Of a stretch of 55,754 bases of DNA, positions 331 to 33,211 are shown one piece after another. The DNA lies in the IMG/VR virus record IMGVR_UViG_3300033146_000323, positions 1 to 55,754 of that record. One strand, 5' to 3'. This stretch comes from a virus. Each line of letters begins with the position of its first letter. The first letter of the stretch is position 1. The notes beneath the pieces were generated by a model, which was not told the DNA's origin, did no database searches, and was given only the letters and a program-made list of their open reading frames with translations. Position numbers and translations under genes: made by a program.

Positions 331-426
331 ATGTGTATAGGTCAGCTATCACAAATCAAAAGAGTATCAGTTGCTCAACACAGACAGACCATACATTGCA
401 CACTTCAGATATGCAACGGTTGGTAA
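331..426 (+). other. Short frame carrying a candidate amidotransferase N-terminus (MCIGQL)
   Basis: ATG 331 opens a 31-codon frame beginning MCIGQLSQIK. Class II glutamine amidotransferases start Met-Cys, with Cys as nucleophile, and the downstream frame (from 371) lacks such a start. A TAAATCAAAT initiation-like motif lies at 316-325, as before several other starts here. A +1 shift at the AAAA run near 358-361 would give MCIGQLSQIK followed by EYQLLNTDRPYIAHFRYAT. It may be a programmed shift, a true mutation, or one extra A in the assembly. Confidence 0.5.
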
Positions 427-1303
427 AATCTGCAAGGCAAACACACACCCATTTGTGTGTGGCAACAATCAAGATGAGTTGTTGATGATGAACGGTACGG
501 TCAGAGGTTACGGTAACGAGAATATGACAGACACCGAAGACTTGGCAATCAAGTTGGGTCGTACACCACGACATACTTGGAAACAATCATTGGCAAAGTT
601 CGATGCAAGATTTGTTGCAATCAATACTCGCACCCGTTCATTTCAAATCTTCAACAAGCACCTGTACACGTACAAGGATGGAGTTTGGTACTCCAAAGAC
701 AACGTGTTGCAAACCAATGTTGTTGCGGTGTATGGCACACTGAAGAAAGGATTCGGTAACTACTACTCGTACCTAACTAATTCAAAACATCTTGGTCGAG
801 GCAAGACCAAAGACAAGTACCCGTTGGTAGTCAGTGGGTTACCTTACCTTATCGAAAAGAAAGGGAAGGGTACGAATGTGGTGGTCGATGTATTCAAGGT
901 CAACAATACCACGTTCAAGAAACTTGATGCACTTGAGTCTCATCCACGTTGGTATGTACGAAAGCAAGTTCCTATCCGTTTGAACGGCAAGACAATTACG
1001 GCTTGGATTTATTTCAATCCGTCTGCGGAAAACAAATGGGATGGAAAGAATCACGTTGAGTCTTTCGAAAGGAAACCAATACTCCCGACAAGAGAGTTCA
1101 CCTTTGAGCCGCAGCAAGAAGTTGAACCTACGTGCAGCCAATTATCATTCTACGATGAGTTCCACGACAAAGAGTTTGGCGATGAGACTCCTATCTGCAT
1201 AGATTGTTTTCACGATTTAGACTACGATGATTTTGCAAACTATCACTGCAATGGATGTGATGCTTGGTTTACAGAGGAAGAAGTGCAACACTTTCAAAAG
1301 TAA
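371..1303 (+). CDS. Class II glutamine amidotransferase-like / gamma-glutamylcyclotransferase fusion with C-terminal zinc ribbon
   Basis: The open frame (free of stops from 341) encodes about 310 residues in three parts. Residues 7-115 resemble an Ntn-type class II glutamine amidotransferase: the AHFRYATVGK and NTHPF segments and the MMNGTV segment match the core strands and substrate loop. Residues 117-216 resemble gamma-glutamylcyclotransferase (GGCT/AIG2 fold), with VYGTLKKG and the acidic catalytic position in LDALESHPRWYVR (Glu189). Residues 276-296 carry two Cys pairs (CIDC and CNGC) typical of a zinc ribbon. TTG 371 is a weak start; the true N-terminus with the catalytic Cys is probably MCIG at 331 in another frame. 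Role inferred: glutamyl/peptide metabolism or modification of a small amine; substrate unknown. Confidence 0.7.
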   Translation: MLNTDRPYIAHFRYATVGKICKANTHPFVCGNNQDELLMMNGTVRGYGNENMTDTEDLAIKLGRTPRHTWKQSLAKFDARFVAINTRTRSFQIFNKHLYTYKDGVWYSKDNVLQTNVVAVYGTLKKGFGNYYSYLTNSKHLGRGKTKDKYPLVVSGLPYLIEKKGKGTNVVVDVFKVNNTTFKKLDALESHPRWYVRKQVPIRLNGKTITAWIYFNPSAENKWDGKNHVESFERKPILPTREFTFEPQQEVEPTCSQLSFYDEFHDKEFGDETPICIDCFHDLDYDDFANYHCNGCDAWFTEEEVQHFQK

Positions 1304-3699: not shown

Positions 3700-4219
3700 A
3701 TTAAAAACCGTAAACATCAAGGGTAAAGAGTACGTTGAAGTAAACGAGAGACTCATCTATTTTAGAAAGACTTACCCAAACTATTCTTTGACATCAGAAG
3801 TGTTAGAGAAGACAGACAAATCAATACTTATTCTCGCTACCATTTCAGATGACAATGGCAGGGTTATATCTACAGGTATGGCTGAAGAAGAGAAAGGAAG
3901 TACATTCATTAACAAGACATCGTATGTAGAGAACTGCGAGACATCAGCGTGGGGTAGAGCGTTAGCAAACTTTGGTATCGGACTTGATACATCAGTTGCC
4001 TCAGCAGATGAAGTGCAGAATGCTATTGCAAATCAAGACAAAGTGTCTTCAAAGACACCAAGTAAAATCAAATTAGAAATTGGCGATGACAATTGGGAAA
4101 AGGTAATGAAGTGGGTGGTTGCAAACAAAGACAAAGGTCTTACTGCAATCGTCAAGACATTACAACAAAAGTATTCTATCCCGAATCTTGTCAAGGCAGA
4201 ACTTAAAAAGAATATCTAA
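3692..4219 (+). CDS. Rad52/DdrA-like single-strand annealing protein (175 aa)
   Basis: Residues about 10-105 follow the pattern of phage single-strand annealing proteins distantly related to Rad52 and DdrA: a GKEYVEVNERLIYFRKTYPN start, a beta core, and the diagnostic FINKTSYVENCETSAWGRAL helix followed by LANFGIGLDTSVAS. The C-terminal region (from about 130) is a small helical extension. These proteins pair complementary single strands during phage recombination. The gene directly precedes a PD-(D/E)XK exonuclease (stop and start overlap by one base), the usual synaptase-exonuclease pair. The assignment rests on remembered family patterns. Confidence 0.7.
   Translation: MAKLKTVNIKGKEYVEVNERLIYFRKTYPNYSLTSEVLEKTDKSILILATISDDNGRVISTGMAEEEKGSTFINKTSYVENCETSAWGRALANFGIGLDTSVASADEVQNAIANQDKVSSKTPSKIKLEIGDDNWEKVMKWVVANKDKGLTAIVKTLQQKYSIPNLVKAELKKNI
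4043..4058. repeat. Dispersed palindrome copy 4 (in coding sequence)
   Basis: Exact GTGTCTTCAAAGACAC inside the annealing-protein gene. Codons GTG TCT TCA AAG ACA (VSSKT), a different reading phase from copy 3; it lies in the linker between the core and the C-terminal extension. Confidence 0.9.
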
Positions 4220-26873: not shown

Positions 26874-29800
26874 TTAAGGTGCACATCCGCATCTAAGTTC
26901 ATTTACTGTTATACCTGCTACGGGTGTGTATTGTTTGTCACATTCAGTTACTGTTTGTCCTGCAACGATTAATCTTAAAATCGGTGTATCATCACAATCA
27001 ATCGTTTGAATTGTTATATTATTCTGAGTTGTATTTGTGTACTCATAAGTTTTACAACTACCCTCACAACAACATTGTTGTAGTACCGCATTATACGTTG
27101 CAGTAGTTGCCGGTGGATTAAATGTTTTAATACATCTTGTCCCCGAGAAACCTGCAAGTTGGCTTTCAGTTACAGTGTTTCCAAAACAGTTTACGTAAGA
27201 AACCTGTCCATCAGATATCCAAAAAACTTGATACTCTTGACATATATCATCACAAGTTATGCCTGTAACAAGAGAACCAATTGTTGCGGTAGCAGGTCCA
27301 TCAGTAATTGCTTGTATTGTGTAATGACATCCATCAATAGTTACTAAGTCGCCCTGACTTGCACCTAACGTATTTTCAACTATGTGGTTCTGAGTTAAAG
27401 AAGGGTCTACACTTGTTCCGTTTTCACATAATGAAGCCTGTCTAAACTCTGTGCATTCACAACCAATCAGTTTCATTTCGTATTGTGCAGTAATTCCCGG
27501 AGGATATACTTCTTTAATACATCTTGTAATTACCTGACTTTCAACTGCCGTGAATCCTAAAATAGTACCATCACACTGCACATATCCAAAATTACCGCCT
27601 GTTAAGAAAGTAACCTCATAATTATGACAAACGTTTTGACACGTAATCTCAATAGGGAATACTTGTGTAGGCACTGCAGTAGCAGGACCTGCTACAATTG
27701 CATCGGCTCTATAAGAACATCCATTGATTTCAACAATTTGTCCAATAACTATAGCACCTCCTACAGATTCTACAACGTGAGTTGTAACTACTGATGGGTC
27801 AGGTGGTACGTTTCCTGCGTCACATATTCTAACTTCTAAAAATTCAGTAGGAACTACATCACACGTACAACTAATTAATCCTACTTCAATACCTACAGGT
27901 TGAACCGGAGGAATCTCTGTTGCACAAACTTCTTCAAACCCTCCTGCCTCTATTAGAGGTATCTCTTGTGGGTCTCCATTACAATCAGTGTATGGTACAT
28001 TAACAATTGGTCCACCTGATGTGTTGTTAAATCTATACGTTTGACACACATCAGTACAGTCTGTAATATCATTTCTAACTGCAGATATGGTGTCAGTTGA
28101 ATTGTCTTGAACTATGCTTGTTATTTCAAACACACAATCAGGATACCCTGTAAGCTCTACAAAGTCACCAATCGTTTCATTGACAAGTTGTGTAACTACT
28201 TCAGTTACTACTTGACCGTCTTGACGACACTGTTGAACTAACATTTGGTCAGGGTCTAATGTACACTGACAATTTGCTAAGTTTAAACTAATTCCTTGTG
28301 GGATTGTAGTAAGCTCAGTCATACAGACTTTTGCCGTACCTCCCGGTGGAAGAGCCTCAGAAACATTTGCTCCCTCACAATCTACATAGTCTACAGTTAG
28401 GGTTGCTTGTGGGTCAGTGTTTGACATATTGTACTCTTGACATACATCAGTACAATCAGTGATGTCATTTCTAACCGCATTAACTGAAGCGTTTACTGAC
28501 TCCTGCGTGGTCTGAGATACTTGGAAAATACAATTAGGATAACCTACAAGCTCTACAAAATCACCTATTGATAACCCAAGATTGTCATCTATAACGAATT
28601 GTTGAATTGTTCCGTCTTCTCTACATTGTCTCACTAACAATCTATCTACTGATTCACCACACTCACAACAAGCAGCAAATGCCGTGTTAGCATCGTAACA
28701 AAGTTCTACTGCAGTTCCATTTCTATAATCGTAAATAATATATAGATATTGGTCGTTAGTATTTGGCATAGTAAACTGTGCTTCATACGTATTAGGTCCA
28801 CCTGTTATTGGTGTAGCATTATTTGAAGCAGCAAGTAAAGCCGTAATATCTCCGGGTGTATTAGCGTAGAACGTGTTAGTTCTTAAATATCTTAATTTAT
28901 CAACCAATGGGTCAAACACAAAATCATCAATCGGAAGGATTCTGTTACTTATAATACTAACATCAGCATTGTCAGCCGGAATAAATCCTCCACCTTGAGC
29001 TCCAACTATTTGAGTAAACTGTGAAACCAAAGGTGTATTGGTTCCTGTGACTAATTCTACTTGTTCACTCTGTAATGGAGAAGTAAATACTCCATCCACC
29101 CATCTATATTCATTATGAATAAATTGTCCTCCATCACCATTAACAGAAAGACAAACCTGAATAATAGTTATCTCTTGAGCATCAGGACAGTTTACTGTTA
29201 CTTCAAGTAATGTGCTACCTGTAGAAGTAACTAAAAGCTCAATGCTTTCTTCTGTTACATTGTTCTTTGGTACAGTTAAAGAACCTGAAACACCTGTAAC
29301 CCCTGTGGTAAATGTTTGTCCATCATAAGTTGCATTCAACACAAAGTCGTCTTGACCTGCTCCAATCACGTTATACTCAATTAACACTTCACCTACAAGC
29401 GTCCCTACATCAACGCAGAAATCACTTGATGATTCAAGTGTCACATTTAAAGTTCTTGTAATACCACATTCAATGCATTCTACAATCTGAGGTAATAATT
29501 CATTGTTTGAACTTAACACGTATTCATTGTGATACGGGTCCCAACCTCCTAACTTTTGCGTATTAAATGATTCAAGAAACAAATCTCTAAACCATCCACG
29601 CATCCCTGCTTCAGAGATAACATTTAATGCTTCATTTTGTCCTGCAGTTCCTCTAAGCTGAATGACTGCTCCTCTTTTTGCATCAGTAAAGAATTTGTTA
29701 GGTCCCCACTTAGCATAGCTTTCAGGATGAAAACTTATACCGTATTCTTCTATACGTGCTACTTGTGTCCCTAATACTTCAGGAATAGACGCAACTGTAC

Positions 29801-30761
29801 TTCCTCCTGTAGAGTCTGTAAGCAAGTTTTTACCTGCTAAAACAAAAGATATCTTGTCTTCTTGTAGTGTAAGTATGTCGGTTTCTCTGCCGTCTAACTT
29901 CATTACGGGTCCAAACTCTTCTTCTAATGGCTTAAAGTTTAACAACCCTAAGTTGAACTCATTTAATTTATTTACGTTGCTCTCATCGTTAAATACACCA
30001 CTATACGTTAAATCAGCAAACCTTCGAACTTCTTGATAATCCTGTGCGGATGTACTCGTTACTTGGTTTCCAATAGCTAACTCTTGCTGACCAATACCAT
30101 CCCTAATCTGATAGCTTTCTACTCCATTACCAAAAGAATAGCAGTTAAAGAATGCAGTATCTATAATAGCAGGTTGTGTAGGAGTTTGATTTTGAATATT
30201 CCCTGCGTGTGCACCGTGTGGTAAAGATATACTTGTAATTACTGTAGTAGGTTGTGATGGTGGGGTAGATGGACTTATAACTGCACTATTACACTCTCCC
30301 AATACAACCTTGCTACCTCCCGGATTAATTGTTACATTTCGAGAGATACCATAAATATCATCATAATCAAACTGAATTGGACTTACCTCTGCAGCCGATA
30401 CAAAGAATGAAAATTGACAAGTGTTTGGTTGAGCGATTGGATAACTCACAGGACTTATGTACCATACATCAGGAACGGCATCCTGTGGTTGAGTTTCAAA
30501 AGCAATAAAAGAGGAGCTTCTAACAACGTCAATAAGAACCTTTAGTTTTGTTTCTTTATTCTTTCCGTTATATCCCTTTGAACTTCTAACTGAAAAAGTG
30601 TCTGCAGCGTTTGGTCCATTGTCTTTAAAGAAACAAGATATTTGACTTGTCTCACAAGATAAAAATCCTGCGTTTATAACAGGGTTGTAGTTTGGACCAC
30701 TAACTCCTGTTCCGTCAGTTGTGGCTTGTGCCTCTAATGCAGGAGCAATATTGTCTCCGTC
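26874..30761 (-). CDS. Downstream half of a frameshifted tail protein, with Cys-rich repeats (about 1295 aa in this frame)
   Basis: The frame is open from the slip site at 30762-30767 to the stop at 26874. The first 104 codons (30761 down to 30450) contain no ATG, GTG or TTG, so the first conventional start is GTG at 30449. The zero-frame upstream gene ends shortly after the slip site. This makes one continuous product with the 30734-33211 gene the simplest reading. The C-terminal 500 residues hold at least four tandem Cys-rich repeats of about 120 residues (elements VQQCRQDGQ, then DFVELTGYPDCVF, then AVRNDITDCTDVCQ, then YVDCEG). These repeats would be a tail surface module, perhaps receptor-binding. 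Confidence 0.7.
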   Translation of the reverse strand, partial: DGDNIAPALEAQATTDGTGVSGPNYNPVINAGFLSCETSQISCFFKDNGPNAADTFSVRSSKGYNGKNKETKLKVLIDVVRSSSFIAFETQPQDAVPDVWYISPVSYPIAQPNTCQFSFFVSAAEVSPIQFDYDDIYGISRNVTINPGGSKVVLGECNSAVISPSTPPSQPTTVITSISLPHGAHAGNIQNQTPTQPAIIDTAFFNCYSFGNGVESYQIRDGIGQQELAIGNQVTSTSAQDYQEVRRFADLTYSGVFNDESNVNKLNEFNLGLLNFKPLEEEFGPVMKLDGRETDILTLQEDKISFVLAGKNLLTDSTGGSTVASIPEVLGTQVARIEEYGISFHPESYAKWGPNKFFTDAKRGAVIQLRGTAGQNEALNVISEAGMRGWFRDLFLESFNTQKLGGWDPYHNEYVLSSNNELLPQIVECIECGITRTLNVTLESSSDFCVDVGTLVGEVLIEYNVIGAGQDDFVLNATYDGQTFTTGVTGVSGSLTVPKNNVTEESIELLVTSTGSTLLEVTVNCPDAQEITIIQVCLSVNGDGGQFIHNEYRWVDGVFTSPLQSEQVELVTGTNTPLVSQFTQIVGAQGGGFIPADNADVSIISNRILPIDDFVFDPLVDKLRYLRTNTFYANTPGDITALLAASNNATPITGGPNTYEAQFTMPNTNDQYLYIIYDYRNGTAVELCYDANTAFAACCECGESVDRLLVRQCREDGTIQQFVIDDNLGLSIGDFVELVGYPNCIFQVSQTTQESVNASVNAVRNDITDCTDVCQEYNMSNTDPQATLTVDYVDCEGANVSEALPPGGTAKVCMTELTTIPQGISLNLANCQCTLDPDQMLVQQCRQDGQVVTEVVTQLVNETIGDFVELTGYPDCVFEITSIVQDNSTDTISAVRNDITDCTDVCQTYRFNNTSGGPIVNVPYTDCNGDPQEIPLIEAGGFEEVCATEIPPVQPVGIEVGLISCTCDVVPTEFLEVRICDAGNVPPDPSVVTTHVVESVGGAIVIGQIVEINGCSYRADAIVAGPATAVPTQVFPIEITCQNVCHNYEVTFLTGGNFGYVQCDGTILGFTAVESQVITRCIKEVYPPGITAQYEMKLIGCECTEFRQASLCENGTSVDPSLTQNHIVENTLGASQGDLVTIDGCHYTIQAITDGPATATIGSLVTGITCDDICQEYQVFWISDGQVSYVNCFGNTVTESQLAGFSGTRCIKTFNPPATTATYNAVLQQCCCEGSCKTYEYTNTTQNNITIQTIDCDDTPILRLIVAGQTVTECDKQYTPVAGITVNELRCGCAP

Positions 30762-33211
30762 AAAAAAGTCTTTACATTACCAAATGGTTTATCTGTATTA
30801 CCACGTCTAAAGTTGTCAATCAAGATTCTAATTCTACTACCTGCCGGTATAGTGTAGTCAATATACACACCCGGATTAAGAGGGTCAGGGTCTTCAATTT
30901 GAACCGGATAATCTATTACAGGACAGTTGTTATCCTTCTTACTTTTTTCTCCAAAAGTAATTACCGGATTATCACCAAGAGTTGTAGAAAAGGTATTAGC
31001 TCTTCTAATCTTCATATATGTGCCGGGTGGCACTACAAGTTCATTATCATTTGCATCTACCGGTTTAGGGTCAAGGAAGTCACGTGTTTGTGATTTCTTT
31101 TCTAATACTGTAGCAAAAGCACATCTACTAAGTGCTCCATTTGTATCAGTTTTTACTTTTAATAAATCTCCTTCTTCAACTTTTCTTGTGTTCTGACCTT
31201 CAATAAGGAAGTAGTCCGCAGAAGTTGTAGGGTCTCTAAAGAAGAAAGAACTATATACATTAAAATAATTTTCTTTGTCTTGTTTGATACAGAACTTATA
31301 TCTCGTTGCCCAAGCCGGAGCAATTTGTTGAATCGGAATAGTAGCTCTGATTTTATTTTGTTGGTCTGAATCTGCACAAGGAATATTAACTGTATTATTT
31401 AAACTAACCAAAGCCGTTGATGCACGGTTAAAGTCGTCCATATAAACAATACCTATCTCATAGTTTCTATCACTATGTAAACTTTTTGGATTACCTGTTT
31501 CTTGGAAAGATGCTCCTGCAAAACTTACTTGATAGTATTCAAAAACCTCTTGAGTAATAGCAACTCCTGTTGGGTCGTCAACAAACCTCATTGCCACTAA
31601 CTGCAATCCTATGTTAGGTGAACCCGGAGAAGAGAAAATTAAAATACCTTGACCTGCTTGGTTTACACCACTTTCAAATTTTGTCAACCCATCTAAAGTC
31701 TGTGGTATAATACAGTTTTGTTCATCTGTTAATGTGACTCCATCACAAGCATTTGCTACAGTTTCAATGTTGGCTGCAGTTCCTATCTTGTCTACAAAAT
31801 CTACACTTGTTGCCAACTCATTTGCTGATGCAAAATCTTGCGGTAAAATGTATTGAAAGTTTATTTCAACCTCCGAAGTAGTATTAGCAGGAAATGGTGC
31901 TTGACCCGTAAATTGTGAGTGTTCAAATTTGATTTGTATATCAATAGCAGAACCTGCTTGTAAGTTAAGACTATCAACATCCAATAAATCAACTCGAGAG
32001 TTTAATATATTTTGTGGACCTACACTTGAATCAATAGTGTATGACCCTGTGGTTTCTGAGGTTTCTATTTCTGTTAGACCAATGTCTACATTAACTTTTT
32101 CTACAGTATATTCTAAAAGCACAGGTTGTCCTGCAGGTGTAACTAAATCATATTGCTCTAAGTAGTTTCCATAAATTAGTCTATTACCCATAAGCGTTTG
32201 AGCTTGAGCTAATCTTGGAACATTATCGTATAACCTAAGTATTTCACTGTCAGGTAAAACTGTAAATATTTTACTATCACTAAAAGTGTAGGTATATTCT
32301 GTATTGTCTACTAATCCTAAAACAGATTTATCTAATTTTTCAATAACTCTAATTAGACCATTGGTCATATCCTTCCACAACAAATCTATACCTACTACTA
32401 AAGAACTTCCTGAATCGTAAGTGATTGTGGCTTGATTGATGAAGTTTAACATCCCTTCATTTAGACCTGTTGCAAAATCATATCTAAATGAGTTTGGAAC
32501 AAATGCAGGTTCAGTAAATTGAGAAACCGCACTGTATTCTCCGTCAGCAAATCTATATCTATAGCCAAACGAAACAAATCTATCTTCTAAAAAATTATTC
32601 TGAGCTGATGTAGATTGTAGTGTAAGACCCGGAGAATTGATAGGTGGTTTTTTGATTACAAGCAACTGCTCTGCAGTTATTTGGTCAATATTAGCTACAG
32701 GGTTTGGGTAATTTCTACCTATGTTTATAAATCTTGGAGGGTTGAGATTGTCCGTAAAAAACAAAAGCTCTGCATCAATAAGATTCGCACCTGTGATTAA
32801 ATAAGTGTCGTTAAAATTTAAAGTAGTATTTACACCACCTCCATCGTCTATACTTATTACGTGATACGTTAAAACATTTTGTTGTACATCTAAAGAGACA
32901 ATCAAGTCCAACTTACCTGTGGTGGGACTACCTTGAAATGCAGGGTCGTGAACAAACCAATAGATTGTTTCGTTAGCACCGTCTTCTACTGCACCAATAC
33001 ATTTGGCTTCAGGGGACAAAGATTGCCCAAGAAATTCTAAGGATGTTAATTGGTCATTACCTTTAGTGTTTTCTACTGACCCTATTTCTGAATCTTCAGT
33101 AGCACCTAAGCGTACATTCAATGCGTCAACATATTGACCATTAGGAATGAGTCTTTCATCAAGACTCTTGTTCATTACTCCTTTTATAAAATTCCTTTGA
33201 ATATTTGCCAT
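30734..33211 (-). CDS. Tail stabilisation/tubular protein, N-terminal half of frameshifted gene (825 aa)
   Basis: The N-terminus (ANIQRNFIKGVMNKSLDERL, then PNGQYVDALNVRLGATEDSE and GSVENTKGN) is the hallmark of phage stabilisation-type tail proteins, as in crAss-like and P22 gp10-type families. The body is beta-rich, as in tail-tube plugs. The last nine residues before the stop (LTETILLLH) look out of frame; the natural continuation (DGDNIAPALEAQATTDGTG) is in the -1 frame. The full product would be about 2,110 residues. Confidence 0.75.
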   Translation of the reverse strand: MANIQRNFIKGVMNKSLDERLIPNGQYVDALNVRLGATEDSEIGSVENTKGNDQLTSLEFLGQSLSPEAKCIGAVEDGANETIYWFVHDPAFQGSPTTGKLDLIVSLDVQQNVLTYHVISIDDGGGVNTTLNFNDTYLITGANLIDAELLFFTDNLNPPRFINIGRNYPNPVANIDQITAEQLLVIKKPPINSPGLTLQSTSAQNNFLEDRFVSFGYRYRFADGEYSAVSQFTEPAFVPNSFRYDFATGLNEGMLNFINQATITYDSGSSLVVGIDLLWKDMTNGLIRVIEKLDKSVLGLVDNTEYTYTFSDSKIFTVLPDSEILRLYDNVPRLAQAQTLMGNRLIYGNYLEQYDLVTPAGQPVLLEYTVEKVNVDIGLTEIETSETTGSYTIDSSVGPQNILNSRVDLLDVDSLNLQAGSAIDIQIKFEHSQFTGQAPFPANTTSEVEINFQYILPQDFASANELATSVDFVDKIGTAANIETVANACDGVTLTDEQNCIIPQTLDGLTKFESGVNQAGQGILIFSSPGSPNIGLQLVAMRFVDDPTGVAITQEVFEYYQVSFAGASFQETGNPKSLHSDRNYEIGIVYMDDFNRASTALVSLNNTVNIPCADSDQQNKIRATIPIQQIAPAWATRYKFCIKQDKENYFNVYSSFFFRDPTTSADYFLIEGQNTRKVEEGDLLKVKTDTNGALSRCAFATVLEKKSQTRDFLDPKPVDANDNELVVPPGTYMKIRRANTFSTTLGDNPVITFGEKSKKDNNCPVIDYPVQIEDPDPLNPGVYIDYTIPAGSRIRILIDNFRRGNTDKPFGNVKTFLTETILLLH
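30761..30768 (-). other. Candidate -1 slippery site (T TTT TTG)
   Basis: On the - strand, the codons ACT TTT TTG ACG contain a run of six T (30762-30767). A -1 slip gives ACT TTT then TTT GAC GGA, after which the frame is open without stops into the downstream tail reading frame. It is consistent with a programmed -1 shift on U UUU UUG, or one missing T in the assembly. Confidence 0.65.

What the first reader, a model, noticed from the sequence alone, without database searches (positions are those of the whole stretch)
26874..33211. Probable -1 frameshift joins two tail reading frames into one protein of about 2,110 residues
The 825-aa frame ends with an out-of-pattern LTETILLLH and stop. At codons ACT TTT TTG, a -1 slip on six T residues leads to a frame open for 104 codons with no start codon before the downstream 1,191-aa frame. 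Known programmed -1 shifts use U UUU UUG-type sites; an assembly error in a homopolymer gives the same picture.
Basis: partly seen in the sequence, partly recalled or inferred. Interest (0 to 1): 0.75.

Follow-up and report, generated by a model that had tools for sequence, protein, structure and literature searches.

The report
Tail-tip gene split by small deletion
Two adjacent reading frames that seemed to be joined by a ribosomal frameshift are one ordinary phage tail-tip gene from which 61 bases are missing in this contig; a near-identical contig and every well-read relative carry the gene in one frame at that place, so the frameshift is not real.

Summary
The two reading frames are there as described: 825 and 1,191 codons on the minus strand, with a frame open for about 104 codons between them and ACT TTT TTG in the overlap. 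They do belong to one protein, but not through a -1 slip and not through a miscounted T run. Contig L004, 99.9% identical over the adjoining 3.5 kb, has the same six Ts, read in one frame (GAC TTT TTT GAC). It also has 61 bases that the window lacks just upstream, at 30773/30772. These encode about 20 residues that relatives keep. Because 61 = 3x20+1, their loss alone moves the frame. Relatives that span the joint read through it in one frame, and none inspected has the heptamer in slip phase. The gene is a crassvirus-type muzzle (tail-tip) protein. A homologue, Cellulophaga phage phi18:3 gp114 (1,612 aa), is annotated from mass spectrometry as one virion protein. The window has a second such deletion (103 bp near 338). 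Contigs from the accession series that holds its sister carry frame-breaking deletions in 4 of 5 cases, against 1 of 21 elsewhere. A sequencing, amplification or assembly artefact is most likely; a real defective variant cannot be excluded.

The parts
30734..33211 (-). N-terminal part of a crassvirus-type muzzle (tail-tip) protein; about the last 12 codons (KTFLTETILLLH) are out of frame
   Evidence: PF25731 crAss_MUZ E 8.4e-10 over residues 5-189; phrog_14478 E 1.7e-137
30772..30773 (-). Joint at which 61 bp present in the sister contig L004 (about 3881-3941) are missing; 2 bp (TA) shared at the ends; shifts the frame because 61 = 3x20+1
   Evidence: Alignments
30762..30767 (-). Run of six T proposed as slip site; also six T in L004, where it reads in frame as TTT TTT (FF); most relatives have TGG TTT (WF)
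26874..30761 (-). Remainder of the same muzzle gene (the 1,191-aa ORF from GTG 30449 plus about 104 codons upstream without a start); C-terminal part has diverging Cys-containing repeats
   Evidence: Continuous ORF across this place in relatives; phrog_14478 positions 886-1363

Best explanation
There is no programmed frameshift. Window 26874-33211 (minus strand) is one gene for a crassvirus/Pachyviridae-like tail muzzle protein, about 2,130 residues in the intact virus, interrupted in this contig by loss of 61 bp at 30773/30772. The loss (shown by comparison) was most likely introduced during library preparation, amplification or assembly of the metagenome (inferred). A genuine deletion in the sampled molecule is the minor alternative. 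In the intact gene the protein is presumably the assembly at the tail end that gates ejection of DNA and cargo, as in phi-crAss001 (inferred from homology).
For: L004 has 3 mismatches in 3,468 bp downstream of the joint and 7 in the 3.9 kb upstream; it holds 61 extra bases at the joint, keeps the T6 run, and reads through the joint in a single frame. The missing residues (WFVDxxFTxxxDYxNF) are conserved in L002, L003, L005-L012, L015, L019. Five contigs and phage MW202828 align to the window with the same frame change and a 19-25-residue gap at 30770-30800. 6338 + 61 = 6399 = 3 x 2133. The isolate homologue phi18:3 gp114 is one CDS of 1,612 aa annotated from MS/MS; MW202828 has one CDS of 1,551 aa and elemoA one of 1,470 aa. 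No other IMG/VR contig has the deleted joint. The window carries a second frame-breaking deletion of 103 bp near 338. L004 has private 19-, 11- and 3-bp deletions, L022 lacks 112 bp, and L008 and L015 have one break each; 4 of 5 contigs of series 33003314x-15x are broken against 1 of 21 others.
Against: The window's own sample series is not known; a link to 33003314x-15x is inferred only from its near-identical sisters L004 and L022. No reads are available. The deletions have no long direct repeats that would explain a k-mer collapse and no unusual hairpins, so the exact artefact mechanism is not identified. A real deletion in a subpopulation would look the same.
Confidence: 0.95

Rival explanations
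1. A programmed -1 ribosomal frameshift at T TTT TTG (30767-30761 region, minus strand) makes a fusion of about 2,112 residues and a shorter 825-residue protein.
For: A canonical heptamer sits in the correct phase; the -1 frame is open; the downstream 91 nt fold somewhat better than shuffles (z -2.2, 5 of 200 shuffles as good).
Against: A near-identical sister and the relatives encode the protein without any shift. The heptamer exists in slip phase only because of the deletion. About 20 conserved residues are missing in the window.
Confidence: 0.02
2. Homopolymer sequencing error in the T run (6 instead of 7 T).
For: Would give the same change of frame.
Against: L004 has the same six Ts in frame, and the frame change is fully accounted for by the 61-bp gap.
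Confidence: 0.01
3. A real 61-bp deletion in the sampled phage genome: a defective or recently mutated variant in the population.
For: Clean joint with 2 bp of shared sequence; cannot be told from an artefact without reads.
Against: Two frame-breaking deletions in one contig, in otherwise conserved genes; private deletions in sister contigs of one accession series, out of proportion to the few substitutions; the muzzle is a hallmark virion protein, so such a genome should not persist.
Confidence: 0.15
4. Two separate proteins (gene fission) with an independent start for the second.
For: GTG at 30449 exists.
Against: About 104 codons upstream of the GTG align with the relatives' continuous protein, and the isolate phages have one CDS.
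Confidence: 0.02

Closest known systems
Virion structural proteins phi18:3 gp114 (Cellulophaga phage, Pachyviridae), Flavobacterium phage elemoA QMP86679.1 and Podoviridae sp. ctfjg026 (MW202828) UOF82506.1; PHROG 14478
   Same: Same position after two conserved structural genes; 30-47% identity; same family over both halves
   Different: Each is one continuous CDS (1,470-1,612 aa); the window's is longer in the C-terminal repeats and broken by 61 bp
Crassvirus muzzle protein (PF25731; phi-crAss001 gp44, PMC10172136)
   Same: N-terminal part matches the Pfam model above its curated cut-off (37.8 against 27 bits)
   Different: The match covers only residues 5-189 of a 1,224-position model; no match to solved chains by sequence
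Programmed -1 frameshifts at X XXY YYZ sites (as in phage tail assembly genes)
   Same: A T TTT TTG heptamer is present at the joint in the window
   Different: Not present in phase in the intact sister or the relatives inspected; frame change explained by a deletion

Membership tests
Programmed -1 ribosomal frameshift | Slippery heptamer in the zero frame | tested here: met
   ACT TTT TTG in the window, but in L004 the same run is GAC TTT TTT GAC, out of slip phase
Programmed -1 ribosomal frameshift | Two overlapping frames conserved across relatives | tested here: not met
   Relatives and the near-identical sister have a single frame here
Programmed -1 ribosomal frameshift | Downstream stimulatory structure | tested here: inconclusive
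   z -2.2 for 91 nt, no pseudoknot tested
Programmed -1 ribosomal frameshift | Trans-frame product observed | not testable with these tools
   No proteomics for this virus
Crassvirus/Pachyviridae muzzle protein | Sequence match to PF25731 / PHROG 14478 | tested here: met
   PF25731 37.8 bits (cut-off 27); phrog_14478 E 1.7e-137 and 1.7e-83 for the two halves
Crassvirus/Pachyviridae muzzle protein | Position in the structural gene order of Pachyviridae-like phages | tested here: met
   Follows two structural genes, downstream of portal and terminase, as in MW202828 and elemoA; same two structural neighbours in phi18:3
Crassvirus/Pachyviridae muzzle protein | Ring-joining, propeller, Ig and crass-fold domains | not tested
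   No structure was predicted; profile search of solved chains gave no hit

The most novel reading that the evidence does not exclude
The deletion is real in the virus population and a -1 slip at the newly phased T TTT TTG heptamer rescues synthesis of a muzzle protein 20 residues shorter: a frameshift born by deletion.
Probability: 0.01. Interest if true: 0.55.

Novelty: not a real feature. Interest (0 to 1): 0.1.

Why it matters
It removes a false programmed frameshift from the record. It also warns that some metagenome-derived virus contigs carry private, frame-breaking deletions of tens of bases that can mimic frameshifts or split genes. A near-identical contig and aligned relatives are enough to detect them.

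Tried and rejected
Homopolymer miscount: rejected, since the T run has the same length in the sister that is unbroken at this place. Intron, intein or bypass element: rejected, because the extra 61 bp in the sister encode residues conserved in close relatives. Hairpin-mediated deletion: the missing segment has a 7-bp inverted repeat, but its folding energy is no better than shuffles (z -0.6), nor is that of the segments missing in sister contigs. Search for other contigs with the deleted joint: none. Search for a paper on sample 3300033148: none held. Literature search on assembly indels: none held with these terms. L030, found by an exact 26-mer, is only a distant relative (about 68%), contains Ns and several breaks, and was not used as a witness for an intact gene.

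Full report
Observation. A -1 shift at ACT TTT TTG does give one open frame of about 2,112 residues. The record is an uncultivated virus contig of 55,754 bases.

One gene. A single family, PHROG 14478, covers both ORFs in succession (profile positions 2-693 and 886-1363). The start of the first matches Pfam crAss_MUZ above its cut-off. Isolate phages and one circular genome have the gene as one CDS: phi18:3 gp114, 1,612 aa, annotated from MS/MS; MW202828, 1,551 aa; elemoA, 1,470 aa. In phi-crAss001 the muzzle is a hexamer of gp44 at the tail end that probably gates ejection (PMC10172136). That function is inferred for the window from homology.

Cause of the break. L004 (IMGVR_UViG_3300033148_000787) matches the window with 7 mismatches in the 3.9 kb upstream of the joint and 3 in the 3.5 kb downstream. 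At the joint it has 61 further bases, which encode the stretch AQKKWFVDADFTASQDYANFK, and one frame runs through. These residues are conserved in the close relatives spanning the place. Searches with relatives' ORFs show the same change of frame and a gap of 19-25 residues in the window for G001, G002, G003, G005, L012 and MW202828. The T6 run is the same length in L004 and is read TTT TTT; most relatives have TGG TTT there. The heptamer is thus in slip phase only because of the deletion, and such heptamers are common in these ORFs anyway (55 in 15 ORFs). The downstream RNA folds slightly better than shuffles (z -2.2), which does not alter this.

Artefact or mutation. The window has a second deletion: relative to G001, 103 bases are missing just after the ATG at 331, so that gene (class-II amidotransferase-like N-terminus plus GGACT domain) has lost part of its first 40 or so codons and its frame. 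L004 has private deletions of 19, 11 and 3 bp, and L022 (99.4-99.8% identical to the window) lacks 112 bp. Of five contigs from accessions 3300033141-3300033155, four have a frame break; of 21 other records one does, and that one contains Ns (Fisher p 0.0016). Contigs are not a random sample and the grouping was made after seeing the data, so the p value is only a guide. The pattern of private, frame-breaking deletions without insertions, in conserved genes and against very few substitutions, points to library or assembly artefacts. Reads would be needed to show it.

Verdict. The halves do belong to one protein; the frameshift is not real. The gene is an ordinary member of a known tail-protein family.

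Noticed in passing
window 331-1303 (+): Second private deletion: about 103 bp missing near 338 relative to G001, removing the start of a gene with class-II amidotransferase-like N-terminus and a GGACT domain.
   Followed up: yes
L004, L008, L015, L022 (IMG/VR 3300033141-3300033155): Frame-breaking deletions (3 to 112 bp) are frequent in contigs of this accession series and rare in other relatives; looks like a series-specific artefact.
   Followed up: partly
window 294, 1314, 2534, 4043, 8152, 9410, 35998, 55561: Recurring 16-bp near-palindrome GTGTCTT(C/T)AAAGACAC, eight copies in the window and six in relative G001, some between genes and some inside ORFs; one lies in a stretch near 232-338 that is about 90% identical in G001. 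Function unknown.
   Followed up: partly
window 26874-28900 (-); L002 and L019 after 11000: The C-terminal part of the muzzle gene consists of diverging Cys-containing repeats whose extent varies strongly among relatives (total length 1,441 to more than 2,800 aa).
   Followed up: no
L030 2229-5434 (IMGVR_UViG_3300002231_000399): Distant relative whose muzzle gene is interrupted after residue 174 by about 0.6 kb and again near the NFKDFFDG motif; the contig contains Ns, so probably poor assembly.
   Followed up: partly
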